DNA from: Scilla litardierei
Lineage: Eukaryota > Streptophyta > Magnoliopsida > Asparagales > Asparagaceae
NCBI GenBank assembly: GCA_030789695.1
Contig: CM061142.1
Coordinates: forward strand, 356,599,486 to 356,663,485
DNA: 64,000 nt
Direction: 5' to 3'
A program made the translations under genes and the position numbers. The notes beneath the pieces were generated by a model that had not been told where the DNA came from, searched no databases, and worked only from the letters and a program-made list of their open reading frames with translations. Below, one piece after another: positions 23,053 to 59,300 of this stretch. Positions within the stretch are counted from its first letter, which is position 1; each line of letters begins with the position of its first letter.

Positions 23053-23117
23053 GCAACCCCTAGGAAGTCCTATTTTCGCAAGAAATTAGCCCTAGCCTCT
23101 TCCAAAACTCAAATTGG

Positions 23118-28400: not shown

Positions 28401-28978
28401 ATATGTGGCGTGTCGTAAATGCAGTTATAGGACCGTACGTGAGGTGAATGTATGGTGAAATATTTGAATGCATTGAATGGCTATATATCGTGAAATTATA
28501 GTAGTGATGAATGTATATTAGATATAGTGAATTTGATTTAATAATGGTATGGTGTGACTATATGTGCTGAGATGATGGTATTGGATGAATATTAGAGGGT
28601 AGTGTACCCTTGAGGTTTGTGCATAGGTAGCTATCTATACGTAGAGCAATGATTGTATTTGCTAGTATGAGATCATACCTATATAAGTATCTGAACTATT
28701 GTTTTGTGAGTAGCAGTTATATAAGGGATGTATGTTTATATACCTGATTGAAATACATGTATGAATTTGACTTACCATAATAGGTATAAGTGTATACGTA
28801 TGTGAATGTATATGTATACGTGGTGGTAGTGTTAATGTTTGACTACCTAGTGCGTATATGAGCACTTGTAATGACTATACTTGGTTTAAATTATAATGTG
28901 GCTTGATTGGGGTAGTTACTAGAGTAACTAGCTATATTAGAAAGTCCGAGGACGGACTTTATTCTAAGGTGGGGAGGA
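25447..28978 (+). other. T1 internal region 1 (non-coding)
   Basis: 3532 bp. It starts with GGTTTTGTTGGTGGCCCATG as in T2 and shares about 120 bp of leader with T2, then diverges completely where T2 has gag. No frame has retroviral homology. About 25700-27130 is C-rich and G-poor on this strand, and 27200-28960 is the reverse, with many TGTATG-type words. It contains a 17-bp duplication (about 25966-25999) absent from internal 2 and the palindrome CACTCAAGCTTGAGTG (28052-28067). It ends with two hairpins and a polypurine tract. Confidence 0.85.
28913..28978 (+). other. Two hairpins and polypurine tract ending T1 internal 1
   Basis: TAGTTACT-AG-AGTAACTA (28913-28930), then AAAGTCCG-AGGA-CGGACTTT (28941-28960), then the purine tract AAGGTGGGGAGGA (28966-28978) directly before LTR2. 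The second hairpin and tract recur before the T3 LTR with a compensated base-pair change. Confidence 0.85.
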
Positions 28979-34900: not shown

Positions 34901-35477
34901 TATGTGGCGTGTCGTAAATGCAGTTATAGGACCGTACGTGAGGTGAATGTATGGTGAAATATTTGAATGCATTGAATGGCTATATATCGTGAAATTATAG
35001 TAGTGGTGAATGTATATTAGATATAGTGAATTTGATTTAATAATGGTATGGTGTGACTATATGTGCTGAGATGATGGTATTGGATGAATATTAGAGGGTA
35101 GTGTACCCTTGAGGTTTGTGCATAGGTAGCTATCTATACGTAGAGCAATGATTGTATTTGCTAGTATGAGATCATACCTATATAAGTATCTGAACTATTG
35201 TTTTGTGAGTAGCAGTTATATAAGGGATGTATGTTTATATACCTGATTGAAATACATGTATGAATTTGACTTACCATAATAGGTATAAGTGTATACGTAT
35301 GTGAATGTATATGTATACGTGGTGGTAGTGTTAATGTTTGACTACCTAGTGCGTATATGAGCACTTGTAATGACTATACTTGGTTTAAATTATAATGTGG
35401 CTTGATTGGGGTAGTTACTAGAGTAACTAGCTATATTAGAAAGTCCGAGGACGGACTTTATTCTAAGGTGGGGAGGA
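31967..35477 (+). other. T1 internal region 2 (non-coding)
   Basis: 3511 bp. It matches internal 1 except for about a dozen substitutions by eye and two length differences that together account for the 21-bp gap: one copy of a 17-bp repeat and two TA units. Confidence 0.9.
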
Positions 35478-38626: not shown

Positions 38627-38759
38627 TATATATATGTGTGCATATATTTTCTTCTTTATATCTTTTTTCTTTATATACACAAGATAAACTCAATATATAA
38701 AAGGAAGCCTATGCATCCCAGACCAGAAGATCTTAGGGCATCGGGTTATGAAGAACCCC
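38627..38759 (-). mobile_element. Middle piece of Athila-like element A1
   Basis: The reverse complement of 38700-38759 joined to 58985 onward matches A2 around 60880-60965 (shared words include GATCTTAG-GCATCGG and ATGCATCCCAGA). The flanks of the Helitron and of T3 are therefore both A1 sequence. The TSD copy ACCCC of T3 is 38755-38759. Confidence 0.7.
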
Positions 38760-40497
38760 TGTCACGCTCCGCTTCCCTAAAATGGAGGCGAGACGTGAGA
38801 AGGTCCGCTCAAACGTGGAGCTGTGAAGCTGCACGCCTGATAAGCGTCAATTTAGTATAAGCAGGTCCCTGTAATCGCAAAAGGAACAACAACAACAATA
38901 ATAATAAAGAAACAGATACGAAATACCAATCCCAAAGTTTATCCGCAAAATATTCAACATCACAGAAAAGCCACCAGGCTAACATGAAAGAGTCTAAGGC
39001 CCAGAACAAGGCCAAACAAAAGCAACACAAACATAACAGAGTATCAAACTAGGTGCCACGCACCGACAACTAAGCAGTCTAACAAAAGAAGCTAAACAAA
39101 GACACTAAGACTGATCCCCAGTGTCAACGAAATCCTCGATCAACGCGGGTTCTGACTCAGCGTCAGCGAACACCTCGTCCTCAGCAAGTAACTCAGGCTC
39201 GGGCTCTAACATGTGTCACCCAAAAGAGAAAAGGGGCACATGTCAGCAAGTCGAAAGACTTGTGCAAGGAAACAGAAAGAAGGTAAACTAGCAACCTAGC
39301 AGTTAAAGTATGGTGCATGACAAGTAAAGTAAGGTGGTAACAAGTAGAGTAAGGTAAAGTGCAAGTAGCAAGTATCAAGTAGTAGGGGTGACGTGTAATG
39401 TCAAGTAACAAGTAAAGTACAAGGGATCACTCAACGAGTGCCCTATTGCCCTCAGGCTGTGTTTAAGTATCAAGTACAAGGGATCACTCAACGAGTGCCC
39501 TATTGCCCTCAGGCTGTGATGAGCTCGTCTTCTGGAACACGAGCCAGAAAGTGTATTTGGCAAGGATGGTGCCCACGCAAGGTGGGTGCCTAGCCGGGAC
39601 GAATGGTATAAGTATGTAGCGAAGCTATGCAATCACGATGAGTATTCAAGCATGCAATGACATGAGCAGATATTCGCGTACCGTTAATTGTATTTAAACG
39701 TGACAGGCAAAATGCAATGACATGAACATATTCGCGTACCGTTAATTGAAATTAAACATGGCAGTTATAATGCAATAACAGTTAAGGATGCATGGATGAC
39801 ATGAACAGTTAATACGCGTACCGTTAAGGGAAAGTAAACATGACATACAAGCATGATGAGGGTGACGGACCAAGCTTCGTTGTCAAGCTAGGTCAATGGC
39901 GTCTAGACGGCTATACTTTCACCGTCTAGTCTCTTTTACGCTAAAGCAAGGTAAATGGCCTAAGACATGGCCTAAATCAAGGGATGCAAGTTTCACTTGC
40001 CTGATACCGGGATTGACGAGCAATGAAGATCGTCACACAAGCTAACTACGGAATGGATCACTGTTATGGCAAAACAATCTTTAGCGCAATGATTCTAAAT
40101 AGGTTTCTTATTAGAACCCTAATCATCTAACAATCCATTTTATTAGGGTTTCACAATGTCAATGTGGGTTATGCTAAAACTAAAGGAATCGAGTATTACC
40201 GCGTAGGGAACGGGAGAATAACGCCGAGCAACCACGGTGACGGAAGAAACGCTCCGGGGAACCTAGGGTTCAGATCTGGAAATGATTAGAGAAGTTTGGA
40301 GAAATAGGGGTTTGGGGGATTTTGGGGATTTGATGGAGATTTGGGGAAGAAGAGAGGTAGAATGGGTTGAGGGAGGGTTTGGATGATGGAGGATGAGCTT
40401 GGGATGAAGGATTAATGGTTTGAGGAAGATGGGGGCTCAATGGGGGAGAAATTAGGGTTTTAGGTCGTGAGGGAGGAGAAGAAAACGTTTGGAGGGG

Positions 40498-40505
40498 TAT
40501 TTATA
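40498..40505 (-). promoter_or_regulatory. TATA box of the T3 LTR
   Basis: TATAAATA on the minus strand, about 45 bp downstream of the palindrome array. The same arrangement is at 58247-58254 in the other LTR. Confidence 0.75.
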
Positions 40506-40549
40506 GAGTTTGGTGGTGGCTAAGGCAAAACTAGGGTTTCCTGCACTGC

Positions 40550-40972
40550 TTAGTCGGTCAAAGAACAACTGTTGACCGACTAGTTTGAGAACTAGTCGGT
40601 CGGTTGACCAACGCAGACCGACTAAGTGTAAACAGTAGCTCTAGTCGAAAACCTGAACTAAGAGTTAGTCGGTCCAAGGACAACTACTGACCGACTAGTT
40701 TGACATCTAGTCGGTCGATGAACGTTCTTAGACCGACTAAGAGTAAACAGTAACTAGTGTCAAAAATAGTTGATGAGTTAATCGGTTAAAGAAGCATTGC
40801 CGACCGACTAGTTTGCAACCTAGTCGGTCAACCAACGTTCTTAGACCGACTAACGACAAACAGTAACTCCAGAATAATTTAGAAAGCCAACTAGTCGGTT
40901 CAAGAAGGTTTACCGACCGACTGGATCGTCATCTAGTCGGTCGGTGGCCCTTCTTACACCGGCTAATTAGCA
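40550..40972 (-). promoter_or_regulatory. Array of 16 alternating TAGTCGGTC/GACCGACTA sites in T3 U3
   Basis: Four tandem units (starting 40550, 40665, 40778 and 40891; period 113-115 bp) each hold four half-sites in forward-reverse-forward-reverse order. A copy lies at about 58298-58723 in the other LTR. Half-sites are better conserved than the spacers between them. Confidence 0.85.
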
Positions 40973-41236
40973 CCAAAAGTTCCGATATGGAGCGCGGAGC
41001 TCCGGGATCTATTCCTAAGACTCCTAGGCTTGATCTAACAATAAGATATGACCAATACGAAGCCCGTCACGAATGACTTGCTCCAAAATCGACGATCCTA
41101 CGGAAGAAGCTAAGAAAACACGACGATATGATCGAAAATGAAAGTTATGGAGACGAAAACCACATATAAGGAGAAAATCCATCAAAACATATAATATAAT
41201 ATAATAAATCCAGATACAAGAAAACCAGTCGTTACA

Positions 41237-41282: not shown

Positions 41283-44200
41283 TCACGTGTCCGGAAACAA
41301 AAGTGGGAAACGCTCTCGCATCTCATCCTTATTCTCCCAAGTAGACTCTCCGGGCGAGCCGTGTCGCCACATCATTCTCACAAGATTGACAACCTTGTTC
41401 CGAAGTGACTTCTGACGCCTGTCCAAAATCTGTACTGGATGCTGGTTATACGTCATGTCGGGGTGAACGGTGATCTCCGAGAAATCCACAGCATGAGATG
41501 GATCACTAATGTATCGACGAAGCTGCGACACATGGAAAACATTGTGAACTCCCTCCAAAGATGGCGGCAAGGCTAAGCGATAAGCTACCTCGCCAACTCT
41601 CTCCAGAATGTCAAACGGTCCAATGTATCGCGAGCTCAACTTCCCTCGCTTCCCAAAACGAATCACACCACGATTCGGGGAAATCTTCAGAAACACATGG
41701 TCTCCCGGCTGAAACTCCAAAGGACGACGTTTAGCATCCGCCCAATGCTTAAAACGGTCCTGAGCAATCCTCAACCTCTCCCGAATGATCCTGATGATAT
41801 CCACAGCCTCCACAATCATCTCAGGTCCCAACAGCTCCCGATCACCAACGTCATTCCAAATCAATGGCGATCGACATTTCCTCCCATACAAAGCGGTGAA
41901 AGGCGCCATGCCAATAGACGCCTGGTAGCTGTTGTTGTAAGAGAACTCCACCAAGTGTAGATGGTCCTCCCACGAACCCTTGAAATCTAACATGCACGCC
42001 CTCAGCATGTCCTCCAAAATCTGAATCGTCCTCTCGGACTGGCCATCCGTCTGCGGATGGTACGTCGTGCTGAAACTCAGACGCGTACCCAAACTCTTCT
42101 GCAAACTCTGCCAGAACTGAGATGTGAACCTCGTGTCCTTGTCTGACACGATGCTCACGGGGACTCTGTGAAGTCGCACAACCTCCTGCACGATTCACGT
42201 TACATCACTATCCAAACTAGGAAAAGGAAATAAAAACGGAGGGTAAAGGAATTTACCTCCATATATCTCCTCGCTAGCGCCTCAGTGGACTGTCCCACTC
42301 GGAATGGAATAAAGTGCACGGACTTGGTCAATCGATCTACGATCACCCAAATCGCGTCATTCTGCTTCGGACTCCGAGGTAGTCCAGTCACGAAATCCAT
42401 AGTGATGTGTTGCCATTTCCACTCCGGAATCGGAAGCAGTTGTAGCAACCCGACCGTACGCTGATGCTCTGCCTTCACTTGCTGGCAAACCAGACACTTG
42501 GCCACACTCCGAGCCACACTCCTCTTCATACCATGCCACCAATAGTTCAGACGAAGATCCTGGTATATCTTGGTGCCACCAGGATGCACAGAATACGGCG
42601 AACTGTGTGCCTCCACCATCAACTCCTCTCTAATATTCCCAGCTGGCACACACAACCTGGCTCCAAACCTCAGCGAGCCATCCTCATGAATCAAAAAGTC
42701 AGTCCGCAGACCGGCTTCCACCTGCTCCCGAATCTTCACCAGCTTCGGATCCTTAGCCTGTCCAGCCTTAATCCGATCCATGATCGTCGACTGTACCTGC
42801 ATGTACATCAATGAAGAAGCCTCCCCAGGAAGAACAATCTCAACACCAGACTCGCAAAAATCATGCTGCAATCTCCACTGCGAGGTCAAGATCATCACCG
42901 TTGGAAGCCTACTCAGCGCATCAGGAACCACATTCACCTTGCCAGGGTGAAACTGCAAATCAATATCATAATCCGCCATAAGCTCCAACCATCGACGATG
43001 TCGCATGTTGAGCTCCTTCTGAGTAAAAATATACTTCAAGCTTTTGTGATCGGTGAAAATCTTCACTTTCTCACTCAGCAGGAAGTGCCTCCAAATCTTG
43101 AGCGCAAACACAACAGCAGCCAACTCCAAATCATGCGTCGGGTAATTCTTCTCATGAACCTTAAGCTGACGAGAAGCATAAGCCATAACATGCCCGTGCT
43201 GATGCAACACACAACCGAGACCCTTACCAGAAGCATCGCAAAAGATCTCGAATCCACCGCTGCGATCAGGCACAACAAGAACAGGGGCAGTCATCAGCCT
43301 CTCCCTCAGAACACCAAAAGCACTCTCACAATCACCCGACCAAACAAAAGGAACATCCTTCCATGTCAACCTGGTCATCGGCTCAGCAATACGGGAAAAG
43401 TCCTTAATGAATCGCCGATAGTAACCAGCAAGCCCAAGGAAATTTCGAATCTCAGACGCTGACGACGAAACGGGCCACTCTCTGATGGCCCTAATCTTCT
43501 CGGGATCCACTGAAATACCATCTCCAGTCACCACATGCCCAAGAAAAGCAACTCTATCCAGCCAAAACTCGCACTTTGAAAACTTAGCATACAACCGATG
43601 CTTCCTCAGAATCTCCAATACCGTCCTCAAGTGCGAGGCATGCTCTTCATCTGACTTCGAATAGATCAGGATGTCGTCAATAAAGATAACGCCAAACTTA
43701 TCTAAAAAGTCGTAGAAAATCAGGTTCATCAGATTCATGAAAACTGCGGGTGCGTTAGTTACGCCGAAAGGCATAACCACAAACTCGTAGTGTCCATACT
43801 TCGTCCTGAACGCTGTCTTCGGAACATCTCCCTTCTTCACCTTCAACTGATGGTAACCACTCCTCAAATCCAATTTAGAAAACACCCTCAAACCTCCTAG
43901 CTGATCAAAGATATCATCGAAGCGAGGCAACGGGTATTTATTCTTGATGGTCACCGCATTCAGCTCCCGATAGTCCATGCACATGCGACGCGAACCATCC
44001 TTCTTCTTCACCAACAACACCGGTGCTCCCCACGGAGACACACTAGGATTGATATAACCCTTCTGCAAAAGCTCATCCAGCTGCTTCCTCAATTCCTCCA
44101 ACTCAGCGGGTGCCATTCGATACGGCGCCTTCGAAATCGGCTGCGCTCCCGGAACAAGATCAATGGAAAATTCTAAAGCTTGATCAGGTGTCAAACCAGA

Positions 44201-44676
44201 CATCTCCTTGGGGAAGACGTCACCAAAATCTCGCACCACAGCTGGCCACTCCAACTCCATCTGCATAGCCACAACATCCACCGGTCTGGCCTGAAATCTG
44301 ACCGGACCCAGCGAACTGCTACCACGACTGAACTCAAATACCGGATGTCCGAGAATCTCGAACACCACCTTCTTCCTCCGACAGTCAATTGTAGCATAGA
44401 AGCTCGCAAGCCAATCCATCCCAATGACCGCATCGTAATTGATGATGTCGTGGACAATGAAATCAGCACAAAGCTCACATCCACAAACCACCAACGGGCA
44501 AGAATTGCACCCACGATGCACCGAGACCACACCATTCCCTGTGACGATATTCCAACTCTTAGGAAGAGAGGACGTCGACAAGGAATGCTTCTCCACAAAG
44601 CTCCGGGCCAAAATGCACATCGACGCACCAGAGTCAAAGAGGACTCGTGCAGGAAATGTGCAAACCAAAACCACAC
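41283..44676 (-). CDS. pol: T3 pol: protease, reverse transcriptase, RNase H, integrase (two exons)
   Basis: Exon 44676-42257 has 806 codons after completing the codon split by intron 1. Order: protease (LFDSGAS near the start), reverse transcriptase ([14 protein letters not shown], then [11 protein letters not shown] near residue 335), RNase H (FEIFCDASG near 480), integrase zinc domain (HPGGTK...CLVCQQ) and the first catalytic Asp ([10 protein letters not shown]). Intron 2 (42256-42186) then interrupts integrase. Exon 42185-41283 continues with the second Asp (SDKDTRF), the Glu in DGQSERTIQ, and a C-terminal chromodomain-like stretch ([26 protein letters not shown]). All catalytic residues I can identify are present and no stop interrupts either exon. 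Unspliced reading would end inside intron 2. The products copy the element RNA into DNA and insert it in the nucleus. Confidence 0.85.
42186..42256 (-). other. T3 intron 2, inside integrase
   Basis: 71 bp, GTAAATTCC...ATCGTGCAG on the minus strand, phase 0. Removal joins RRYME to the codons for EVVRLH and keeps the integrase fold continuous. T2 has a 71-bp intron at exactly the same codon (53281-53351). Confidence 0.85.
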
Positions 44677-44785
44677 CTAGCAAACAATCTAACAATCAAA
44701 TCCTATCCTAGTAACAAGCATGAGCAAGCAACCAACAAAATCAACAATCAAACTAAGGGAGATAAATAGCTGGAGTGAGCGTTAC
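44677..44785 (-). other. T3 intron 1, between gag and protease
   Basis: 109 bp, GTAACGCTC...TTTGCTAG on the minus strand, phase 1 (splits a glycine codon). Spliced, gag runs in frame into protease (DEVISG then VVLVCTF). Unspliced, Gag would end after about 12 further residues at a stop inside the intron. T2 has the same intron at 50747-50860. Confidence 0.85.
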
Positions 44786-45918
44786 CTGAAATAACCTCAT
44801 CCACGGCCATGCTCTCCTCCTCAGTCATCAGAAAGGCCTGCCCTCTCGGTGGAACAGCCTGCCGAAAGGCCTGTCTCTGTGGAACAAGAGGCGCTCCACG
44901 TCCAACGGGCACAGGAGCTCGCTGTTGCAACGGCTGTGCTGCAATAGGAGCCCGCCAAGGCTGCTTCGACTTCAGACACTCCCTGATGGTGTGGGCAGGA
45001 TCTCTGCAGACAATGCACTGTCCTAGAAACCTCCTACACTGATCCCTGAGGTGTCCAATCTTGACGCAGAAATGGCAAGTCTTCAGAATAGGCCCTCCTG
45101 GCCTCTTGAACTGCACCGGATGATTAGGCTTGAAACTAGGCCTAACCACCGCCCTGGCCTGCTCCATAGGCCTCTTCCCAGCTCCGAAAACATGTCCCTT
45201 CCTCTGGTTCAAATTCAACTCCTGCCGACTCGCAGCAATCAGAACTTTCTGATATGTCTCCAGGTCAGAAGAGGTCACAAAGCTCTGAAGCTCAAAGGCA
45301 AGTCCCTGAAGAAATCGCTGAGCTTTCTCATCGGCATCTTGCACCATCTTTGGTGCAAACCGACTGAGCCTCGTGAACTCTTGGTGGTACTGATCCACCG
45401 ACAAGCTCCCCTGCTTCAGATCTATGAAGCGCTGCAGCATCACCTGCCTAGCAGCCTTCGGGAAGAAACTCTCCATCAAATCTGGACTTGAAGGTAGCCC
45501 AAACTATCGGCTCCACCAACATCTTCTCTTCAGCATCCCACCAGTTTCTGGCATTGTCCTTCAGCTGCCTCTTAGCCAAATCAACCCATCCAGCAGGGTT
45601 AATCTTCGCCATCGCCAGGTTATCCTCAATGTTTCGAATCCACTCATCGGCAGCCAGAGGACCCTCAGACCCATCAAAATATGCAGGACCCAGCTCCCGA
45701 AATTGCTTCGCTCTCGGCTCGGAGCGAGGGACATCCGGAAGAGCCCGGGCAGCTCGAGCAAGTGGAGCATTCTGGACTTGCAGGAGCACGCCCTGCTACA
45801 CTTGCATCATCTGGATCATCATCCGCATCATCTCTCCATTGGTGGGTTCCCGCTCAGGCTCCTCATCATGAGGGAGCGCACCACTACCCCCACCACGGGT
45901 GAATCGCCTTCCTGCCAT
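44786..45918 (-). pseudogene. gag: T3 gag with two zinc knuckles, one stop and one frameshift
   Basis: Starts at ATG 45918 (MAGRRFTRGGG), the same start as T2 gag, directly after an acceptor-like TGTCATTAG. It contains the Retrotrans_gag domain (FDGSEGPLAADEWIRNIED, KDNARNWWDAE, SVDQYHQEFTRLSRFAPKM) and two CCHC knuckles, CHFCVKIGHLRDQC and CIVCRDPAHTIREC, that bind RNA. A TAG replaces a Gln codon near 45799, and a single-base frameshift lies near 45475. Gag assembles the cytoplasmic particle, so this copy could not supply full-length protein itself. Confidence 0.88.
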
Positions 45919-46062: not shown

Positions 46063-46677
46063 TGTCACGCCCCGCTTCCCTAAAATGGAGGCGAGACGTG
46101 AGAAGGTCCGCTCAGACGTGGAGCTGTAAAGCTGCACGCCTGATAAGCGTCAATTTAGTATAAGCAGGTCCCTGTAATCGTAAAAGGAACAACAACATTA
46201 ATAATAATAAAGAGACAGATACGAAATACCAATCCCAAAGTTTGTCCGCAAAATATTCAACATCACAGAAAAGCCATCAGGCTAACAGGAAAGAGTCTAA
46301 GGCCCAGAACAAGGCCAAACAAAAGCAACACAAACATAACAGAGTATCAAACTAGGTGCCACGCACCGACAACTAAGCAGTCTAACAAAAGAAGCTAAAC
46401 GAAGACACTAAGACTGATCCCCAGTGTCAACGAAATCCTCGATCAATGCGGGTTCTGACTCAGCGTCAGCGAACACCACGTCCTTAGCAAGTAACTCAGG
46501 CTCGGGCTCTAACATGTGTCACCCAAAAGAGAAAAGAGGCACATGTCAGCAAGTCGAAAGACTTGTGCAAGGAAACAGAAAGAAGGTAAACTAGCAACCT
46601 AGCAGTTAAAGTATGGCGCATGACAAGTAAAGTAAGGTGGTAACAAGTAGAGTAAGGTAAAGTGCAAGTAGCAAGTA
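46063..46677 (-). repeat. T3 5' LTR, inner part
   Basis: The 3'-most 615 bp of the LTR, matching 38760-39374, cut at the T2 insertion. The last five bases, AAGTA, are the T2 target-site duplication. Confidence 0.93.
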
Positions 46678-49508
46678 TGTAACGGTACGTTTTCGTTGTA
46701 CTTTGTTCGTGCACAAGCTTTTGGCCGTGCACGTGTTTATTTTAGATTTTATTTGATTGTGAACACTTTTGTGTGATATGCCGTTGGGAACGTCTCTGAG
46801 AGTAATAAATAGTGGCACTATCTTGGAACGACACTTCTCGAGTCGGTTTTCCACAATTTAAACTTACTCGATGAGACGTAACGATTCTCACTCTTGACGG
46901 GAGACGTTTCTATTTTTAGTTTCGTCATCCGACGTCGAATTTGAGATCCGTCTTCTTAGTTAGCTGACTTTCATCATCACGATCACCCCGATATTTATTT
47001 TATAATTTTTGGAGTTTATTTGACCACTTTTATATTTTTAACAAGTTTTATAATATTTTTTAATAATTAATTTATAAATTATTTTCGGCCAAATAAAATT
47101 TATTTGAGTTTTAAACGTTTTAAAGAATTTTTGAGCCAATTTCCAGCTCATTTGGACCAGGTCAAACCCTTGGGTGAGTTGGAGAAGTTGAATTTCAAAT
47201 TTTAAATTATTTTAAACTTCTAATACTATTAGATTTAGCCCTAGACCAAGTCAACCCATCTACACTATATAAGCAACCCCTAGGAAGACATATTTTCGCA
47301 AGAAATTATCCCTAGCCTCTTCCAAAACCCAAATTGGACGTTGCGACGATTCGTCGCAACGTTGCGACGTTCAGCCACCGCACCGATCGAGAAAACCAAC
47401 CAAATTTCCCCGCTCCGACCGCTAGCCGCCCCCGCATCCATCCCCGCTCGCATCGCAGTGCATCGCCCCGCTCCGTTCCCTCGGTCTGACCGAGGGCTTG
47501 GCCGCACCCCGCTCGCATCCCCGCTCCGCATCAACTCCGCACAGCGCCCGCACCAACCCCCGCCTTGTCGCCCCGCTCCGCACAGCGCCCGACCGACCCG
47601 CATCCCCGCACCGACTGACGATTGCAACGCTACAACGTTGCAACGTCGCAGCCCTCGCATCCAAGCGCACGACCGACGCGCTCTACCGCTCCGATCGAAG
47701 GAGGCCCCCGCATTCGCTGCTGCGACCGACCCAAACGCTGCACAGCCCCGTTTCCCCGCAGCGACCGAGAGAATCTCCCGCATTGGCTGGGTACGACCGA
47801 GAGCCATTCGTCGCAACCCCGCATCCGTCGCACCTCTTGCCTCCGTGGGCCCCCCAAGTTCTCCAGAGGTATTGTGGGTCCCCCAAAGGTCCCTAGGACT
47901 ACTGTGGGCCCAACCTAGGTGCGTTCTCTTCGACGATTTGCCGCGTACGACGTCGTCGCACGTCGTAGCCTGTCGTCGCACGTGCTAGCTTTGGAATCTG
48001 GATTCGTCGCCCCGGTTGATTGCTCTGAAATTTCCAGCGAGGAATCTAATTGGAATCTGGACTTGGAGCGCGATCTTTTATTCCAACCCCCGGCGTCGCT
48101 ACCCGACGCCGGTGTAGCTTTCGCGTCGTGTTGAGGTAACGCTTTGCACCCTTAGGACCCCCAACCCAATTGCATGCTAACCAAGACTAAAAATCAGTAT
48201 TTTAAAGTATTTTAAATGTTTTAGAAATCACTAATCAAGATTAATAAAACGGATGTAGGCCGGTGGACTTGTGCACGTAAGAATCGTGACTTTGGACTCG
48301 TTGGACGGTGTTTTATTGACGTGATAGTTGCAGGCAAGTGAAACTTGCCAAATCTTGCTTAGGGCCATGTTTTTAGGCCACTTACTTGTTTTTAGCGTAA
48401 AAGAGACTAGTCAGTGAAATGATAGCTGGCTAGACGCCTACTTGATCTAGTTTGACAACGAAACTAGATCCGTCACCTAATTGATCTAGCTTGACAACGA
48501 AGCTAGATCCACCCCTTTAAACTTGTTGTTCATGCATACTAAACGGTCACGTTTACTTTCCTTACCTGTACGCTTTACTACTTGCCATGTCATGTCATCC
48601 ATGCATTGAATGTCGCATTCGTAGCACACGCTACACTACTTGTACTACTTGTCCGGCTAGGTGCACCCATACGCCATACTTGTTTAAAACACTTCCTGGC
48701 TCGTGGTCCAGAAGTGGGCCTCATGTGTTGGCTGAAAACCAATGCCCGATACACGTGGAGGGGTAGGGATAAACGGTCACTTGAGCTTAGGAGTTGGCCC
48801 GCGCAGCCACTCTAGCCAAAAGACGGAATCTCTGTGCACGAGGTGCTTACTTTACTTGTCTTGTACTTGTCTTGTGAATGTCATGCCATGCTCGTACTTT
48901 ACTTTACTTTACTTTACCTGTTGTACTCATTACTTTAACTGCCATGTCATTGCATCATGCTAGAACTGCTAGGTTGCTTTACTTTTACATACTTCCAGTT
49001 TCCTTGCACAAGTCTTCCAGACTTGCTGACATGTTCCCCTTGCTCTTTTGGGTGTCACATGTTAGACCCTGAGCCAGAGACAGTTGCTGAGGACGAGGTG
49101 TTTGCTGACGCTGAGCCCGAGCCTACGTTCGTCGAGGAGTTTGAGGACACCGGAGACCAGTCTTAGAGACTGATTTTACTTGGTTTTGCTTTAGGTTGCT
49201 GTTAGTTGTCGGTGCTTGCACCATTGCTTTGTTTTCGTACTTTGTACTTTTGTTGGCCATGCTGGGCCTCTTTTAGACTCTTTTATTTTAGCCTGGTGGC
49301 TTTTCTGCGATGTTGAGATTTATTATTATGGATATTCTGAGATGTTCTTTTGTCTCTTTTCGTTATTATTATCTTTGTTTCGTTTCGCGTTGCAAGGACA
49401 TGTAGTTAAAATTGATTGACGCTTATCGGACTTGCGGCTTTGTAGCTTCAAGTCTGAGCGGACCTTCTCACGCTTCGCCTCCACGTTTTTGGGAAGCTGG
49501 GCGTGACA
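46678..49508 (+). repeat. T2 5' LTR
   Basis: TGTAACGGTACG...GCGTGACA. TATATAA is at 47266-47272, the 25-nt inverted repeat at 47338-47362 and twin hairpins at 48444-48509. A GAG/GTAACG donor-like site lies at 48135-48136. The GC-rich stretch at 47340-47990 gives long but meaningless open frames on both strands. Confidence 0.93.
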
Positions 49509-49540
49509 GGTTTTGTTGGTGGCCCATGCAGGTCCTATCT
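49509..49540 (+). other. Putative primer-binding region of T2 (non-standard)
   Basis: The LTR is followed by GGTTTTGT and then TGGTGGCCCATGCAGGTCC. The same block follows T1 LTR1 and LTR2 and the T3 5' LTR. It starts with TGG as primer sites do, but it is not the usual TGGTATCAGAGC, and I cannot assign a tRNA. Confidence 0.45.
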
Positions 49541-49656
49541 TGCGATTGCAAACTAACGGAACAACGATAATGAACGGAATATCCATTAAATAAATTGCAA
49601 CATCCAAGTCATTAAGCTTTGAGTCTAATCTGTTTGTTTGTTTTCCTTGTCCTTAG

Positions 49657-50746
49657 ATGGCTGGACGACGACAGACCCGATCTGGCAGTGGGCCCAATCG
49701 TGCTGAGGAGCCAGATAGAGAGCCCACCAATGCTGAGATCATGAGGATGATGCATCAGATGATGCAGGTGCAGCAGGGCATGCTCCAGAACACTCAAAGT
49801 GCTCCTCGCCTCGAGCCAGGAGCGAAGCAGTTTCGGGAGCTGGGCCCGACTTACTTTGATGGATCTGAGGGACCGTTAGCTGCAGAGGAGTGGATCAGAA
49901 ACACTGAGGATAATCTGAAGATGTCGAAGGTCAACCCGGCTGGATGGGTTGATCTGGCGAAGAAGCAGCTTAAGGATAATGCCCGAAACTGGTGGGATGC
50001 AGAGGAGGAGCTGTTGGTGAGCCCTATACCTTGGGCTACTTTCAAGTCCAGATTCGATGAGGAGTACTTTCCGAAGGCTGCTATGAGGGAGATGTTGCAG
50101 CGCTTCATTGAGCTGAAGCAGGGGAGTCTGTCGGTGGACCAGTACCACCAGGATTTTACTAGACTGAGCCGCTTCGTGCCTAAGATGGTAGAGGATGCTA
50201 AGGAGAAGGCTCATAGGTTTCTGCAGGGTCTTTCTCTAGACTTGCAGAGTTTGGTGTCTACGACAGACATGGAGTCATATCAGAAGTTGCTGGTAGCTGC
50301 TCGGAGACAGGAGAGGATTGCGAAGCAGAAGAGAGGACTGATTTCTGGAGCTGGGAAGAGGCCTATGGAGCAGGTCAGAGGAGTGGTTAGGCCTGGGACT
50401 AGGCCTAATCAGACGGTGCAGTTCAAGAAGCCAGGTGTGCCTCCCGAGAAGACTTGCTATTTCTGTGGCAAGACCGGGCATGTCAAGGATCAGTGTAGGA
50501 AGATGTTGGGTCAGTGCCTGATTTGTGGAGACCCTACTCATGCTATGAAGTAGTGCCCGAGATCTAAGCTACCTTGGAAGGATCCAGTCGCCGCACAGCC
50601 GTTGCAGCAGAGAGCACCTATACCTGCAGGTCGTGGAGCACCCCTCGCTCCTCAGAGGAAGGCTTTTCAGCAGGCCATGCAGCCGAGGAGGCAGGCTTAC
50701 CTGATGACGGCAGTGGAGAGCGAGGCTGTGGATGAGGTTATCGCAG
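49657..50746 (+). pseudogene. gag: T2 gag with two zinc knuckles, one premature stop
   Basis: ATG at 49657 follows an acceptor-like CTTGTCCTTAG. The frame covers the Gag domain (FDGSEGPLAAEEWIRNTED, KDNARNWWDAEEE, SVDQYHQDFTRLSRFVPKM) and two CCHC knuckles. The first, CYFCGKTGHVKDQC, is intact. The second, CLICGDPTHAMK-x-C, has a TAG (50551-50553) where T3 has an ordinary codon, one residue before its last Cys. Beyond the stop the frame stays open to the intron 1 donor at 50746/50747 (SEAVDEVIAG). Similarity to T3 gag is high along the whole length. Confidence 0.9.
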
Positions 50747-50860
50747 GTAACTCTCAAACTAGTTGTTTCCTTCCTTTGATAGTTTGATTGATTGCTTATG
50801 TTTGTTGCTTGCATATGTTTGTTTGTTAGAATAAGGTTTGATTGTTAGATTGTTTGTTAG
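50747..50860 (+). other. T2 intron 1, between gag and protease
   Basis: 114 bp, GTAACTCTC...TTTGTTAG, phase 1. It sits at the same codon as T3 intron 1. Removal makes gag and protease one frame. Retention ends Gag at a TGA at 50785-50787. Confidence 0.85.
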
Positions 50861-53800
50861 GTGTGATTTTGGTTTGCACATTTCCTGCACGAGTCCTCTT
50901 TGACTCAGGTGCATCGATGTGCATTATTTCATGGAGCTTCGTGGAGAAGCATTCCTTGACGACTTCCCCTCTTCCCAAGAGTTGGAACATCGTTACAAGA
51001 AACGGCGTGATCTCGGTGCATCGTGGGTGCACTTCTTGCCCTTTGGTGGTCTGTGGACATGAGCTTTATGCTGACTTTATTGTCCACGATATCATCAACT
51101 ACGATGCCGTGCTCGGGATGGATTGGCTTGCGAGCTTTTATGCTACGATCGATTGTCGGAGGAAGAAAGTGGTGTTTGAGATCCCCGGACATCTGGTGTT
51201 TGAGTTCAGTCAAGGTAGCAGTTCGCTTGGCCCTGTCAGGTTTCAGGCCAGATCGGTGGAGCTTGTTGTTATGCAGATGGAGTAGGATAGACCAGCTGTG
51301 GTACGAGAATTCGATGACGTCTTCCCCGAGGAGTTGTCTGGACTGCCGCCCGATCGAGCTCTCGAGTTTTCGATCGACCTTGTTCCAGGAGCGCAGCCTA
51401 TTTCGAAGGCACCGTATCGGATGGCACCAGCAGAGTTGGAGGAGTTGCGTAGGTAGCTGGACGAGCTTTTGCAGAAGGGATACATCAATCATAGTGTGTC
51501 TCCGTGGGGAGCACCGGTGTTGCTGGTGAAGAAGAAGGATGGTTCGCGTCACATGTGTGTGGATTACCGGGAGCTGAATGCTATGACTATCAAGAATAAA
51601 TATCCTTTGCCTCGGATAGATGACATCTTTGATCAGCTCGGAGGATCGAGGGTGTTCTCTAAGTTGGGTTTGAGAAGTGGTTACCATCAGCTTATGGTGA
51701 AGAAGGACGACATCCCGAAGACAGCTTTCAGGACGAAGTATGGTCACTACGAGTTTGTGGTTATGCCCTTCGGCGTAACCAATGCGCCCGTAGTCTTTAT
51801 GAACCTGATGAATTTGGTCTTCTACAACTTCCTAGACAAGTTCGTCGTCATCTTCATTGACGACATCCTGATCTATTCAAAGTCGGAGGAAGAGCATGCA
51901 TCGCACTTGAGGACAGTGTTGGAGATCTTGAGGAAGCATCGTTTGTATGCTAAGTATTCCAAGTGCGAGTTCTGGCTGGATAGAGTTGCCTTTCTCGGGC
52001 ATATGGTGTCTGGTGATGGGATTTCTGTGGATCCCGAGAAGATTGTGGCTATCAGGGAGTGGCCGGTTCCGCAGTCGGCGTCTGAGATCAGGAGTTTCCT
52101 TGGGCTTGCAGGATATTATCGGCGTTTCATCAAGGACTTTTCTCAGATTGCTGAGCTAATGACCAGACTGACGCGGAAGGATGTGCCTTATGTTTGGTCT
52201 GATGATTGCGAGAAGGCTTTTGGTATTCTGAAAGAGAGGTTGACGACTGCCCCTGTACTTGTTGTGCCTGATCGGAGTGGAGGATTCGAGATCTTTTGCG
52301 ATGCTTCTGGCAAAGTTTTAGGATGTGTGTTGCATCAGCATGGGCATGTGGTTGCGTATGCTTCTCGTCAGCTTATGGCTCATGAGAAGAATTACCCGAC
52401 ACATGATTTGGAGTTGGCTGCCATCGTGTTTACGCTGAAGATTTGGAGGCACTTCCTGCTGAGTGAGAAGGTGAAGATCTTCACCGATCACAAAAGCTTG
52501 AAGTATATCTTTACTCAGAAGGAGCTCAACATGCGACAACGTCGATGGTTGGAGCTCATGGCAGACTATGAGATTGACTTGCAGTATCACCCTGGCAAGG
52601 TGAATGTAGTTCCAGATGCGCTGAGCAGACTTCCAGCGGTGATGATGTTGACCTCGCAGTGGAGATTGCAGCAGGATTTTTGCGAGACCGGTATCGAGAT
52701 TATTCTTCCTGGAGAGACTTCTTCGATGATGAGTATGCAGATACAGTCGACGATCGTTGATAGGATCAAGGCTGGACAGGCTGGAGATGCTAAGCTTGTG
52801 AAGATTCGGGAGCAGGTGGAAGCCGGTCTGCGGACTGACTTTTTGATCCACGAGGATGGTTCGTTGAGATTTGGAGCCAGGTTGTGTGTGCCAGCTGGAG
52901 ATATCAGAGAGGAATTATTGGTGGAGGCACACAGTTCGCCGAATTCTGTGCATCCTGGTGGCACCAAGATGTACAAGGATCTTCGTCTGAACTTTTGGTG
53001 GCATGGAATGAAGAGGAGTGTGGCTCGGAGTGTAGCCAAGTGTTTGGTTTGCCAGCAAGTAAAGGCGGAGCATCAGCGTACGGCAGGGTTGCTACAACCG
53101 CTTCCGATTCTGGAGTGGAAGTGGCAGCACATCACTATGGATTGCGTGACTGGACTACCTCGGAGTCCGAAGCAGAACGACGCGATTTGGGTGATCGTAG
53201 ACCGATTGACCAAATCTGCACACTTTATTCCCTTCCGAGTAGGACAGTCTACTGAGACGCTAGCGAGGAGATATATGGAGGTAAATTCGTTTACTCTCCG
53301 TTTCCATTTCCTTTTACTAGTTTAGATAGTGATGTAACGTGAATCGTGCAGGAGATCATACGACTTCACGGAGTCCCCGTGAGTATCGTGTCGGACAGAG
53401 ACACGAGATTCACATCTCAGTTTTGGCAGAGTCTGCAGAAGAGCTTGGGTACGAGTCTGAGTTTCAGCACGGCGTACCACCCGCAAACGGATGGCCAGTC
53501 CAAGAGGATGATTCAGATTCTGGAGGATATGTTGCGAGCTTGCATGTTGGACTTTAAGGGATCTTGGGAGGATCATCTCCATCACGTTGAGTTTGCCTAC
53601 AATAACAGCTACCAGGCGAGTATTGGAATGGCGCCTTTTGCCGCGCTATATGGAAAGAAATGTCGATCGCCAGTGAGCTGGGATGACATTGGAGATAGTG
53701 AGCTGTTAGGACCGGAGATGATCGTGGATACCGTGGATGTTGTGAGGAATATTCGAGAGAAGCCGAGGATTGCGCATGACCGTTTCAAGCATTGGGCAGA

Positions 53801-54256
53801 TGCTAAACGGAGGCCTTTGGAGTTTCAGCCTGGCGATCATGTATTCCTGAGGATTTCTCCGAACCGCAGAGTTATTCGATTTGGGAAGAGAGGCAAGCTG
53901 AGTCCGAGGTTCATTGGACCGTTCGATGTTCTGGAGAGAGTTGGAGCTGTGGCTTATCGCTTGGCGTTGCCACCGTCGCTTGTGGGAGTTCACGACGTAT
54001 TTCACGTATCTCAGTTACGTCGATACGCTAGTGACCCATCCCACACTGTGGATTTCTCGGAGATTACAGTTCGTCCGGATCTGTCTTATGATCAGCAGCC
54101 CGTTGAGATTCTGGATCGTCGACAGAAGCAGCTGAGGAATAAGACCGTCGACTTGGTTGAGTGCAGTGGCGTCACGGTTCCCCTGGTGAGTCCACCTGGG
54201 AGCGTGAAGATGAGATGAGAGAACGTTTCCCGCACCTTTTCCCGAGCAGTGCTTGA
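50861..54256 (+). pseudogene. pol: T2 pol, two exons, with stops, frameshift and altered integrase
   Basis: Exon 50861-53280 has the same 2420-bp length as in T3. It covers protease (LFDSGAS), reverse transcriptase ([25 protein letters not shown]), RNase H (FEIFCDASG) and the integrase zinc and first catalytic region ([10 protein letters not shown]). In-frame TAG codons lie at 51283 and 51454. Intron 2 is 53281-53351. Exon 53352-54256 has the second Asp (SDRDTRF), but the catalytic Glu of DGQSERTIQ is Lys here (DGQSKRMIQ). A one-base deletion near 54160 shifts the frame before the chromodomain-like tail, which is still readable ([15 protein letters not shown]) to a TGA at 54254-54256. This copy should be unable to move by itself. 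Confidence 0.9.
53281..53351 (+). other. T2 intron 2, inside integrase
   Basis: 71 bp, GTAAATTCG...ATCGTGCAG, phase 0. Same codon and same length as T3 intron 2. Without removal the frame ends at a TAG near 53323. Confidence 0.85.
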
Positions 54257-54297: not shown

Positions 54298-57117
54298 TGT
54301 AACGGTACGTTTTCGTTGTACTTTGTTCGTGCACGTGCTTTTGGCCGTGCACGTGTTTATTTTAGATTTTATTTGATTGTGAACACTTTTGTGTGATATG
54401 CCGTTGTGAACGTCTCTGAGAGTATTAAATAGTGGCACTATCTTGGAATGACACTTCTCGAGTCGTTTTTCCACAATTTAAACTTACTCGATGAGACGTG
54501 ACGATTCTCACTCTGACGGGAGACGTTTCTATTTTTAGTTTCGTCGTCCGACGTCGAATTTGAGATCCGTCTTCTTAGTTAGCTCACTTTCGTCATCACG
54601 ATCACCCCGATATTTATTTTATAATTTTTGGAGTTTATTTGACCACTTTTATATTTTTAACAAGTTTTATAATATTTTTTAATAATTAATTTATAAATTA
54701 TTTTCGGCCAAATAAAATTTATTTGAGTTTTAAACGTTTTAAAGAATTTTTGAGCCAATTTCCAGCTCATTTGGACCAGGTCAAACCCTTGGGTGAGTTG
54801 GAGAAGTTGAATTTCAAATTTCAAATTATTTTAAACTTCTAATCCTATTAGATTTAGCCCTAGACCAAGTCAACCCATCTACACTATATAAGCAACCCCG
54901 AGGAAGACCTATTTTTGCAAGAAATTAGCCCTAGCCTCTTCCAAAACCCAAATTGGACGTTGCGACGATTCGTCGCAACGTTGCGACATTCAGCCACCGC
55001 ACCGACCGAGAAAACCAACCAAATTTCCCCGCTCCTACCGCTAGCCGCCCCCGCATCCATCCCCGCTCGCATCGCAGCGCATCGCCCCGCTCCGTTCCCT
55101 CGGTCTGACCGAGGGCTTGGCCGCACCCCGCTCGCATCCCCGCTCCGCATCAACTCCGCACAGCGCCCGCACCAACCCCCGCCTTGTCGCCCCGCTCCGC
55201 ACAGCGCCCGACCGACCCGCATCCCCGCACCGACCGACGATTGCAACGCTGCAACGTTGCAACGTCGCAGCCCTCGCATCCAAGCACACGACCGACCCGC
55301 TCTACCGCTCCGATCGAAGGAGGCCCCCGCATCCGCTGCTGCGACCGACCCAAACGCTGCACAGCCCCGTTTCCCCGCAGCGACCGAGAGAATCTCCCGC
55401 ATTGGCTGGGTACGACCGAGAGCCATTCGTCGCAACCCCGCATCTGTCGCACCTCTTGCCTCCGTGGGCCCCCCAAGTTCTCCAGAGGTATTGTGGGTCC
55501 CCCAAAGGTCCATAGGACTACTGTGGGCCCGACCTAGGTGCGTTCTCTTCGACGATTTGTCGTGTACGACGTCGTAGCCCGTCGTCGCACGTGCTAGCTT
55601 TGGAATCTGGATTCGTCGCCCCGGTTGATTGCTCTGAAATTTCCAGCGAGGAATCTAATTGGAATCTGGACTTGGAGCGCGATCTTTTATTCCAACCCCC
55701 GGCGTCGCTACCCGATGCCGGTGTAGCTTTCGCGTCGTGTTGAGGTAACGCTTTGCACCCCTAGGACCCCCAACCCAATTGCATGCTAACCAAGACTAAA
55801 AATCAGTATTTTAAAGTATTTTAAATGTTTTAGAAATCACTAATCAAGATTAATAAAACGGATGTAGGCCGCTGGACTTGTGCACGTAGGAATCGTGACT
55901 TTGGACTCGTTGGACGGTGTTTTATTGACGTGATAGTTGCAGGCAAGTGAAACTTGCCAAATCTTTCTTAGGGCCATGTTTTTAGGCCACTTACTTGTTT
56001 TTAGCGTAAAAGAGACTAGTCAGTGAAATGATAGCTGGCTAGACGCCTACTTGATCTAGTTTGACAACGAAACTAGATCCGTCACCTAATTGATCTAGCT
56101 TGACAACGAAGTTAGATCCACCGCTTTAAACTTGTTGTTCATGCATACTAAACTGTCACGTTTACTTTTTTTACCGGTACGCTTTACTACTTGCCATGTC
56201 ATGTCATCCATGCATTGAATGTCGCATTCGTAGCACACGCTACACTACTTGTACTACTTGTCCGGCTAGGTGCACCCCTACGCCATACTTGTTTAAAACA
56301 CTTCCTGGCTCGTGGTCCAGAAGCGGGCCTCATGTGTTGGCTGAAAACCAATGCCCGATACACGTGGAGGGGTAGGGATAAACGGTCACTTGAGCTTAGG
56401 AGTTGGCCCGCGCAGCCACTCTAGTCAAAAGACGGAATCTCTGTGCACGAGGTGCTTACTTTACTTGTCTTGTACTTGTCTTGTGAATGTCATGACATGC
56501 TCGTACTTTACTTTACTTTACTTTACCTGTTGTACTCATTACTTTAACTGCCATGTCATTGCATCATGCTAGAACTGCTAGGTTGCTTTACTTTTACATA
56601 CTTCCAGTTTTCTTGCACAAGTCTTCCAGACTTGCTGACATGTGCCCCTTGCTCTTTTGGGTGTTACATGTTATACCCTGAGCCAGAGACAGTTACTGAG
56701 GACGAGGTGTTTGCTGACGCTGAGCCCGAGCCTACGTTCGTCGAGGAGTTCGAGGACACCGGAGACCAGTCTTAGAGACTGATTTTACTTGCTTTTGCTT
56801 TAGGTTGCTGTTAGTTGTCGGTGCTTGCACCATTGCTTTGTTTTCGTACTTTGTACTTTTGTTGGCAATGCTGGGCCTCTTTTAGACTCTTTTATTTTAG
56901 CCTGGTGGCTTTTCTGCGATGTTGAGATTTATTATTATGGATTTTCTGAGATGTTCTTTTGTCTCTTTTCGTTATTATTATCTTTGTTTCGTTTCGCGTT
57001 GCAAGGACCTGCAGTTAAAAGTGATTGACGCTTATCGGACTTGCGGCTTTGTAGCTTCAAGTCTGAGCGGACCTTCTCACGCTTCGCCTCCACGTTTTTG
57101 GGAAGCGGGGCGTGACA
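54298..57117 (+). repeat. T2 3' LTR
   Basis: 2820 bp, collinear with 46678-49508. TATATAA is at 54885-54891, the inverted repeat at 54957-54981 and twin hairpins at 56053-56118. It ends GCGTGACA, followed by AAGTA. Confidence 0.93.
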
Positions 57118-57122
57118 AAGTA

Positions 57123-58984
57123 TCAAGTAGTAGGGGTGACATGTAATGTCAAGTAACAAGTAAAGTACAAGGGATCACTCAACGAGTGCCCTATTGCCCT
57201 CAGGCTGTGTTCAAATATCAAGTACAAGGGATCACTCAACGAGTGCCCTATTGCCCTCAGGCTGTGATGAGCTCGTCTTCTGGAACACGAGCCAAAAAGT
57301 GTATTTGGAAAGGATGGTGCCCACGCAAGGTGGGTGCCTAGCCGGGATGAATGGTACAAGTATGTAGCGAAGCTACGCAATCACGATGAGTATTCAAGCA
57401 TGCAATGACATGAGCAGATATTCGCGTACCGTTAATTGTATTTAAACGTGGCAAGCAAAATGCAATGACATGAACATATTCGCGTACCATTAATTGAAAT
57501 TAAACATGGCAGTTATAATGCAATAACAGTTAAGGATGCATGGATGACATGAACAGTTAATACGCGTACCGTTAAGGGAAAGTAAACGTGACATACAAGC
57601 ATGATGAGGGTGACGGACCAAGCTTCGTTGTCAAGCTAGGTCAATGGCGTCTAGACGGCTATCCTTTCACTGTCTAGTCTCTTTTACGCTAAAGCAAGGT
57701 AAATGGCCTAAGACATGGCCTAAATCAAGGGATGCAAGTTTCACTTGCCTGATACCGGGATTGACGAGCAATAAAGATCGTCACTCAAGCTAACTACGGA
57801 ATGGATCACTGTTATGACAAAACAATCATTAGTGCAATGATTCTAAATAGGTTTCTTATTAGAACCCTAATCATCTAACAATCCATTTTATTAGGGTTTC
57901 ATAATGTCAATGTGGGTTATGCTAAAATTAAAGGAATCGAGTATTACCGCATAGGGAACGGGAGAATAACGCCGAGCAACCACGGCGACGGAAGAAACAC
58001 TCCGGGGAACCTAGGGTTCAGATCTGGAAATGATTTGAGAAGTTTGGAGAAATAGGGTTTTGGGGGATTTTGGGGATTTGATGGAGATTTGGGGAAGATG
58101 AGAGGTAGAATGAGTTGAGGGAGGGTTTGGATGATGGAGGATGAGCTTGGGATGAAGGATTAATGGTTTGAGGAAGATGGGGGCTCAATGGGGGAGAAAT
58201 TAGGGTTTTAGGTCATGAGGGAGGAGAAGAAAACGTTTGGAGGGGTATTTATAGAGTTTGGTGACGGCTAGGGCAAAACTAGGGTTTCCTGCACTGCTTA
58301 GTCGGTCAAAGAACAACTGTTGACCGACTAGTTTGAGAACTAGTCGGTCGGTTGACTAACGCAGACCGACTAAGTGTAAACAGTAGCTCTAGTCGAAAAC
58401 CTGAACTAAGAGTTAGTCGGTCCAAGGACAACTACTAACCGACTAGTTTGACATCTAGTCGGTCGATGAACGTTCTTAGACCGACTAAGAGTAAACAGTA
58501 ACTAGTGTCAAAAATAGTTGATGAGTTAGTCGGTTAAAGAAGTATTGCCGACCGACTAGTTTGCAACCTAGTCGGTCAACCAATGTTCTTAGACCGACTA
58601 ACGACAAACAGTAACTCCAGAATAATTTAGAAAGCCAACTAGTGGGTTCAAGAAGGTTTGCCGACCAACTGGATCGTCATCTAGTCGGTCGGTGGCCCTT
58701 CTTACACCGGCTAATTAGCACCAAAAGTTCCAATATGGAGCGCGGAGCTCCGGGATCAATTCCTAAGACTCCTAGGCTTGATCTAACAATAAAATATGAC
58801 CAATACGAAGCCCGTCACGAATGACTTGCTCCAAAATCGACGATCCTACGGAAGAAGCTAAGAAAACACGACGATATGATCGAAAATGAAAGTTATGGAG
58901 ACGAAAACCACATATAAGGAGAAAATTCATCAAAACATATAATATAATATAATAAATCCAGATACAAGAAAACCAGTCGTTACA
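57123..58984 (-). repeat. T3 5' LTR, outer part
   Basis: Continues from 46677 after the T2 insertion and matches 39375-41236. It contains the palindrome array (about 58298-58723), the TATA box (58247-58254) and the hairpin at 57616-57642. The TSD ACCCC follows at 58985-58989. Confidence 0.93.
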
Positions 58985-59300
58985 ACCCCTCGAGCCTTTT
59001 ATTTCGGATATTTTTCTTTTTGTTTTTGGGATTTTTGCAAACTCATGTAAACACGATGGAATGCAAAACACGATCAAAGATCGTTATTGGCTATATACAA
59101 ATATAAAAATAAAAAGATAGAATTTGGGACGTGGCTTAGTATCAGAATCTATGACCAACGCTACTCAAGTGGGTTATCCAAATTCTTTCGAATTACCATT
59201 CATTATGAAAATATGTCATTATTCACACAATCATGCAATTAGTCATTCAATCTTTAATTAATCATGCAACTTTACCTTAACTGTTTCGAGGATACTCATT
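58985..59300 (-). mobile_element. Right piece of Athila-like element A1
   Basis: The reverse complement is similar over its whole length to A2 at about 60590-60900, with shared landmarks CGAAACAGT, GGATAACCCA, TTTGTATATAGCCAA and TTTGCAAAAATCCCAAAAAC. Beyond about 59300 the similarity fades, so A1 is truncated or diverged there. Confidence 0.75.

What the first reader, a model, noticed from the sequence alone, without database searches (positions are those of the whole stretch)
50747..53351. Two spliceosomal introns at identical positions in the gag-pol of two Tekay/Del-like elements
In T2 (plus) and T3 (minus) the coding frame is interrupted at the same two places. One is 114/109 bp between gag and protease (50747-50860; 44677-44785). 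The other is 71/71 bp inside integrase (53281-53351; 42186-42256). Both start GTAA and end AG, and their removal restores the frame at the same codon in both elements. The exon between them is exactly 2420 bp in each. T3 pol is otherwise free of stops, so the interruptions are not simply decay. Plant Ogre elements are known to carry an intron in their coding region, but I know of no description of a two-intron gag-pol in this chromovirus clade.
Basis: partly seen in the sequence, partly recalled or inferred. Interest (0 to 1): 0.9.

Follow-up and report, generated by a model that had tools for sequence, protein, structure and literature searches.

The report
Two-intron gag-pol in plant retrotransposons
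Two related plant jumping genes carry what look like two genuine introns in the gene for their copying machinery, so their RNA would have to be spliced to make the proteins but left unspliced to be copied, which is unusual for this type of element.

Summary
T2 (+) and T3 (-) are Ty3/gypsy LTR retrotransposons whose gag-pol is broken at the same two places: 114/109 bp between gag and protease (intron 1) and 71/71 bp inside the integrase core (intron 2). Both begin GTAA, end AG and stop the incoming frame; the exon between is 2420 bp in each.

Spliceosomal introns are strongly supported. Against homologues, exons 2 and 3 abut with no residue missing or extra. Donors rank 1 and 2 of 301 GTs (T2) and 1 and 3 of 319 (T3). 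The intervals are T-rich; dN/dS is 0.08-0.16 on exons 2 and 3 and the tested part of exon 1. Four database relatives (two of them near-copies) open exactly at the intron-2 acceptor on unrelated tails ending in Q. In a tree of 46 rows chosen by me, all sure intron-2 carriers share one supported clade with three rows that read straight through.

No RNA evidence was available. Intron 1 was not confirmed outside this window. "Tekay/Del" was not tested against named references. Intron-bearing plant LTR elements are known (Ogre, BARE1, EVADE); ten paper searches listed no two-intron chromovirus gag-pol. New variant of a known kind.

The parts
46678..49508 (+). T2 5' LTR; target-site duplication AAGTA at 46673-46677 and 57118-57122
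   Evidence: LTR pair 97.5% identical; flanks read
54298..57117 (+). T2 3' LTR
49657..50746 (+). T2 exon 1: gag (Retrotrans_gag, Ty3_capsid, zf-CCHC, matched in the part before its in-frame TAG at 50551-50553)
50747..50860 (+). T2 intron 1, 114 bp, phase 1, CAG|GTAACT...TTGTTAG|GTG; 50% T; branch-point-like TTGAT with its A 20 nt from the intron end
50861..53280 (+). T2 exon 2: protease, reverse transcriptase, RNase H, integrase zinc-binding domain and first part of integrase core; 2420 bp; two in-frame TAG
53281..53351 (+). T2 intron 2, 71 bp, phase 0, GAG|GTAAAT...GTGCAG|GAG, inside the integrase core domain
53352..54218 (+). T2 exon 3: rest of integrase core, SH3-like C-terminal domain
44786..45918 (-). 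T3 exon 1: gag, with an in-frame TAG and a 1-bp length difference from T2
44677..44785 (-). T3 intron 1, 109 bp, phase 1, CAG|GTAACG...TTTGCTAG|GTG
42257..44676 (-). T3 exon 2: protease-RT-RNase H-integrase first part, 2420 bp, no stop
42186..42256 (-). T3 intron 2, 71 bp, phase 0, GAG|GTAAAT...GTGCAG|GAG
41283..42185 (-). T3 exon 3: rest of integrase core, SH3-like domain, weak chromodomain match (15.1 bits, under the Pfam cut-off of 25.1)
38760..41236 (-). T3 3' LTR; target-site duplication ACCCC at 38755-38759 and 58985-58989
46063..46677 (-). T3 5' LTR, inner part (the outer part lies beyond the T2 insertion)
57123..58984 (-). T3 5' LTR, outer part

Best explanation
The two intervals are spliceosomal introns in the gag-pol gene of a lineage of plant Ty3/gypsy retrotransposons, probably chromoviruses. 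Spliced RNA joins the gag, protease-RT-RNase H-integrase and integrase C-terminal exons into one reading frame and serves as mRNA for Gag-Pol. Unspliced RNA is the genome that is packaged and reverse transcribed, which is why the introns persist; if translated, it yields Gag with a 12-13 residue tail ending in intron 1. RNA spliced only at intron 1 would give protease, RT and RNase H with a broken integrase. Partial splicing would thus set the Gag to Pol ratio. Shown here: the anatomy, the shared positions, purifying selection on the exons, and signs of intron 2 in other elements of one clade. Inferred: that splicing takes place, that it is partial, and that it sets the ratio. The confidence given is for introns that are removed to make Gag-Pol; for the ratio-setting step alone I would say about 0.6.
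For: (1) Same positions, GTAA...AG ends and stops in the incoming frame in both elements. (2) The end of exon 2 and the start of exon 3, searched apart and never joined, abut with 0 residues between them in 197 of 212 anchored homologues for T2 and 196 of 210 for T3 (many rows are near-copies from melon). For junction 1 the T2 exon ends are separated by exactly the one residue of the split Gly codon in 95 of 106. (3) Donors rank 1 and 2 of 301 GTs (T2) and 1 and 3 of 319 (T3); acceptors rank 17 and 22 of 416 and 19 and 17 of 371 (matrix recalled). (4) T content is 50/45% (intron 1) and 41/42% (intron 2), against 28/30% in exon 2; of the exon-2 windows of equal length, 0 of 2304, 0 of 2309, 0 of 2347 and 19 of 2347 reach it. 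(5) dN/dS between T2 and T3 is 0.121 (exon 2, dS 0.49), 0.081 (exon 3, dS 1.21) and 0.160 (213 codons of exon 1, dS 1.20), so the protein stayed functional in lineages that share the introns. (6) P0001, P0009, P0010 and P0018 open on tails MNVQ, MNLSQ, MNLSQ and MSNIELGNSQ placed exactly at the intron-2 acceptor, as a frame entering from an intron ending CAG would; T2's own frame reads ...*IVQ|E there. P0009 and P0010 are near-copies, so these are three independent cases. (7) All six sure intron-2 rows (these four, T2, T3) fall in one 13-row clade with support 100/98; against 30 run-through rows the label is clustered, only 1 of 500 shuffles needing as few changes.
Against: No RNA evidence at all. 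Intron 1 is certain only in T2 and T3: the gag search found no homologue, and the T3 junction-1 test placed only 9 of 107 rows at the expected one-residue distance, its short query landing elsewhere. Both copies carry other defects, so neither is shown to be active. Intron 2 has no branch-point-like YTNAY closer than 36 nt to its end. Acceptors are good but not top ranked. Three clade members read straight through the intron-2 site. dS differs along the gene and the middle is more alike than the flanks, which hints at recombination, so intron 2 and the neighbouring exon may have been shared more recently than the flanks.
Confidence: 0.9

Rival explanations
1. The intervals are two insertions into a dead ancestor, inherited by both T2 and T3, which were copied in trans by other elements.
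For: Both copies carry other stops and length defects.
Against: dN/dS of 0.08-0.16 over dS of 0.5-1.2; gap-free abutment at the exon 2/3 junction; signs of intron 2 in other relatives.
Confidence: 0.04
2. Interval 1 is a translational device between gag and pol (frameshift, bypass or reinitiation) and only interval 2 is an intron.
For: A gag/pol border is a usual place for recoding (recalled); intron 1 was not confirmed outside the window.
Against: Stops in the incoming frame and lengths of 114 and 109 that differ in phase; donor CAG|GTAACT is the best-scoring GT of T2; T-richness.
Confidence: 0.05
3. The introns are real, but they do not set the Gag to Pol ratio; they persist by drift and only the export of unspliced genome is special. 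(Not exclusive of the best explanation: it denies only its last step.)
For: Close relatives that read through the intron-2 site exist in the same clade (P0005, P0123, P0061), so that intron seems dispensable.
Against: Persistence of both introns in T2 and T3 despite a life cycle that can erase them; unspliced RNA ends the frame just after gag in both.
Confidence: 0.35

Closest known systems
Ogre (Tat lineage, non-chromovirus Ty3/gypsy)
   Different: In Ogre the intron lies between the gag-protease and RT-RNase H-integrase frames; here there are two, one between gag and protease and one inside integrase.
BARE1 and EVADE (Ty1/copia)
   Same: Plant LTR elements with a functional intron that separates Gag from Pol output (passages of PMC3735527, and PMC12786077).
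   Different: There splicing gives a Gag-only message and unspliced RNA encodes Gag-Pol; here splicing would be needed to make Pol.
CRR (rice; its place in the CRM chromovirus clade is recalled)
   Same: A Gypsy element whose transcripts are spliced, according to one sentence of PMC3735527.
   Different: Described there as removing rt and creating two ORFs, not as restoring a full gag-pol frame.
Intronless Ty3/gypsy elements of seed plants of the same general type
   Same: Same domains and high protein similarity.
   Different: 95 of the 120 listed exon-3 homologues scored as reading straight through the intron-2 position.

Membership tests
Ty3/gypsy LTR retrotransposon | LTR pair with target-site duplication | tested here: met
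   T2: AAGTA; T3: ACCCC; LTRs about 97.5% identical
Ty3/gypsy LTR retrotransposon | Domain order gag-PR-RT-RH-INT | tested here: met
   Pfam matches in that order over the exons; the split integrase core matches only weakly
Chromovirus | Chromodomain at the integrase C-terminus | tested here: inconclusive
   T3 15.1 bits; P0001, P0005 and P0009 18.7-20.9; all under Pfam's cut-off of 25.1; none listed for the shortened T2 exon 3. Several listed homologues carry a precomputed PF00385
Tekay/Del clade | Position among named reference elements in a tree | not tested
Ogre | Intron between protease and RT | tested here: not met
   The introns lie between gag and protease and within integrase
Spliceosomal intron (U2 type) | GT...AG ends at the exact frame-restoring junction | tested here: met
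   for junction 1 in T3 the homologue test was unclear (9 of 107)
Spliceosomal intron (U2 type) | Removed from RNA | not testable with these tools
   No transcript data

The most novel reading that the evidence does not exclude
A whole clade of plant chromovirus-type elements keeps a two-intron gag-pol over long times although each copying of spliced RNA could erase the introns. Selection would then maintain them as a switch between genome and mRNA, with a way to export unspliced genome, perhaps helped by the conserved 35-codon ORF in their LTRs.
Probability: 0.3. Interest if true: 0.8.

Novelty: new variant of a known kind. Interest (0 to 1): 0.62.

Why it matters
Retrotransposons copy themselves through RNA, so an intron in an essential gene should be lost whenever spliced RNA is reverse transcribed. 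Elements that keep two introns must separate RNA for translation from RNA for copying. They offer a natural test of how plants export unspliced RNA, how Gag and Pol are balanced, and how introns are gained and lost in mobile genes. Practically, annotation that expects one open frame could call such elements degenerate.

Tried and rejected
Looked for DNA of relatives in viral contigs with a 300-residue piece of exon 2 and in genome contigs with exon 3: no relative. The gag search found no homologue at E <= 0.001 among 287 candidates, so intron 1 could not be checked outside the window. P0123 (70% identical over exon 2) has no evident gag sequence before its protease (by eye), which may be an intron 1 or a frame break; left undecided. 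The intron-2 donor was not tested in relatives: the exon-2 list is filled by long proteins, mostly from melon, and I read only nine of its 120 in full. A leader intron ending at TTAG|ATG before gag was considered: CTAAT precedes it in T2 and T3, but the acceptor is not among the four best listed; unproven. A programmed frameshift as sole explanation was rejected on interval phases and stops. Rfam gave no match in the window. The search of the window's own assembly did not complete. The first tree held two long rows, P0146 and P0148, probably cut at the wrong place; its label count compared sure rows only with uncertain ones (4 changes, at least 3 forced; 94 of 500 shuffles as low). I rebuilt it without those two and counted against run-through rows.

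Full report
What is there. The 38.7-59.0 kb part of the window holds two nested LTR retrotransposons. T3 lies on the minus strand, with its 3' LTR at 38760-41236 and its 5' LTR split into 46063-46677 and 57123-58984 by the insertion of T2. T2 lies on the plus strand, with LTRs at 46678-49508 and 54298-57117. Both have 5-bp target-site duplications (AAGTA for T2, ACCCC for T3) and LTR pairs about 97.5% identical. Pfam finds gag, protease, RT, RNase H, integrase zinc-binding and Tf2-1-like SH3 domains in order. The integrase core is cut in two by interval 2; the part in exon 3 matches rve weakly.

The intervals. T2 is interrupted at 50747-50860 and 53281-53351, T3 at 44785-44677 and 42256-42186. 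Exon 2 is 2420 bp in both and aligns without a gap (87.5% identity); interval 1 is 79.8% identical with 5 gap columns and interval 2 91.5% with none. Reading on from gag, the frame ends within interval 1 after GNSQTSCFLPLIV (T2) or GNAHSSYLSPLV (T3); reading on from exon 2 it ends within interval 2.

Are the junctions exact? I compared the exon ends with homologous proteins separately, without joining them. The end of exon 2 and the start of exon 3 abut with no residue between in 197 of 212 anchored homologues for T2 and 196 of 210 for T3; about two thirds of the rest are proteins that open at or near the junction. A first attempt with gapped BLAST gave 101 of 191 at zero and 88 at three for T2, and 186 of 190 at zero for T3; the threes all but vanished in the ungapped test (1 of 212), so I take them as an alignment effect. 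For junction 1 the T2 ends are one residue apart, the Gly whose codon the intron splits, in 95 of 106; the T3 query did so in only 9 of 107, its short end matching better further upstream, chiefly in melon near-copies. Junction 1 therefore rests mainly on T2 and on the T2/T3 alignment. Rows are not independent: many are near-copies from melon.

Splice signals. With an approximate plant matrix (recalled), the proposed donors rank 1 and 2 of 301 GTs in T2 and 1 and 3 of 319 in T3; the acceptors rank 17 and 22 of 416, and 19 and 17 of 371. T content is 50/45% in intron 1 and 41/42% in intron 2 against 28/30% in exon 2; A+T is also high, though 14 of 2309 and 80 of 2347 exon-2 windows reach that of T3's two introns. 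U-richness is a stated mark of plant introns (passage of PMC3735527). Intron 1 has TTGAT with its A 20 nt from the end in both elements; intron 2 has no such motif closer than 36 nt.

Selection. Between T2 and T3, dN/dS is 0.121 (bootstrap 0.092-0.156) in exon 2, 0.081 (0.058-0.122) in 268 codons of exon 3 and 0.160 (0.104-0.230) in 213 codons of exon 1. The protein was thus kept functional over long separate histories in lineages that share the introns, which argues against inheritance from a dead ancestor. dS is uneven: about 1.2 in exons 1 and 3, 0.49 in exon 2 and 0.28 at the end of exon 2, with identity highest over about 50.8-53.5 kb. Recombination between lineages is a likely reason and is a caveat for dating the introns.

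Relatives. Exon 3 was searched against 5.8 billion proteins (7996 scored, best 120 listed). Of the 120 listed, 18 gave no usable start of exon 3, 95 scored as reading through the junction, and 7 had other residues or too few before it. Of these seven, P0001, P0009, P0010 and P0018 carry tails MNVQ, MNLSQ, MNLSQ and MSNIELGNSQ, unlike the LYI-type residues of other elements and ending in Q, as a frame entering from an intron that ends CAG would; P0009 and P0010 are near-copies. P0008 (MQ), P0012 (ME) and P0108 (MK) are ambiguous, because MQ, ME and MK also occur there in run-through proteins. I take these to be unspliced predicted frames that show genomic structure, but I could not read their DNA.

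Tree. I chose 44 proteins from the lists and added T2 and T3 (46 rows; an earlier version with 48 rows is, where one chosen protein, P0131, dropped out as too short). All six sure intron-2 rows lie in one 13-row clade (100/98) with four uncertain rows (P0004, P0012, P0026, P0030) and three run-through rows: P0061, and the pair P0005/P0123 that sits beside the P0009 group (83/93). Against the 30 run-through rows the sure rows need 3 changes of the label, of which well-supported branches force 1, and 1 of 500 shuffles does as well. One gain with two later losses fits, but separate gains are not excluded, and near-copies help the clustering.

Mechanism. If spliced, RNA gives Gag-Pol; if not, it gives Gag with a short tail and is the copy that keeps introns in the genome. 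That separates mRNA from genome and could set the Gag to Pol ratio. This is the reverse of BARE1 and EVADE, where splicing makes the Gag-only form, and resembles Ogre. The ratio and regulation are inference.

Novelty. A 2025 review says plant LTR retrotransposons generally lack introns, naming Ogre and EVADE as exceptions (passages of PMC12786077); PMC3735527 adds BARE1, CRR and the env RNA of the clade that includes Bagy2 (passages). Word finds gave nothing on introns of the elements themselves in a survey of Beta chromoviruses (12 of 13 passages of PMC3605345 shown) and no use of 'intron' or 'splic' in a paper on plant centromeric retrotransposons (PMC3059260). Ten paper searches were answered and none listed a two-intron chromovirus gag-pol or an intron in integrase of such an element; I saw titles, starts of abstracts and the passages named, and most subscription journals are not held. 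The host plant was not identified.

Noticed in passing
49059-49166 and 56668-56775 (+); 46515-46408 and 39212-39105 (-): A 35-codon acidic ORF (MLxPEPE...FADAExEP...DTGDQS*) in both LTRs of T2 and T3, with dS 0.65-0.88 and dN 0.14-0.20 between the elements, as under purifying selection, though on few sites. It could be a small regulatory ORF or an exon; the frame looks broken in T1.
   Followed up: partly
49509-49656 (T2), 46062-45919 (T3): The leader ends in CTAAT, a pyrimidine-rich stretch and TTAG directly before the gag ATG, like a 3' splice site; T1's similarity to T2 ends about 20 bases before that ATG.
   Followed up: partly
22459-38464: T1: three LTRs in a row separated by two internal regions of about 3.5 kb without a nucleotide match to the gag-pol of T2/T3; repeats about 99.3% identical, flanked by one CATAT duplication; LTRs 86-88% like T2's over about 2 kb, so perhaps a non-autonomous partner of T2.
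   Followed up: no
49509-49540 and 46062-46031: The sequence after the LTR (GGTTTT..TGGTGGCCCATGCAGGTCC), kept in T1, T2 and T3, does not look like the initiator-Met primer-binding site usual for such elements (recalled); the primer is unknown.
   Followed up: no
50814-53513: T2 and T3 are more alike here than in the flanking gag and 3' integrase, which suggests recombination between element lineages.
   Followed up: partly
10407-11072 (-): A copia-type gag fragment (Retrotran_gag_2).
   Followed up: no
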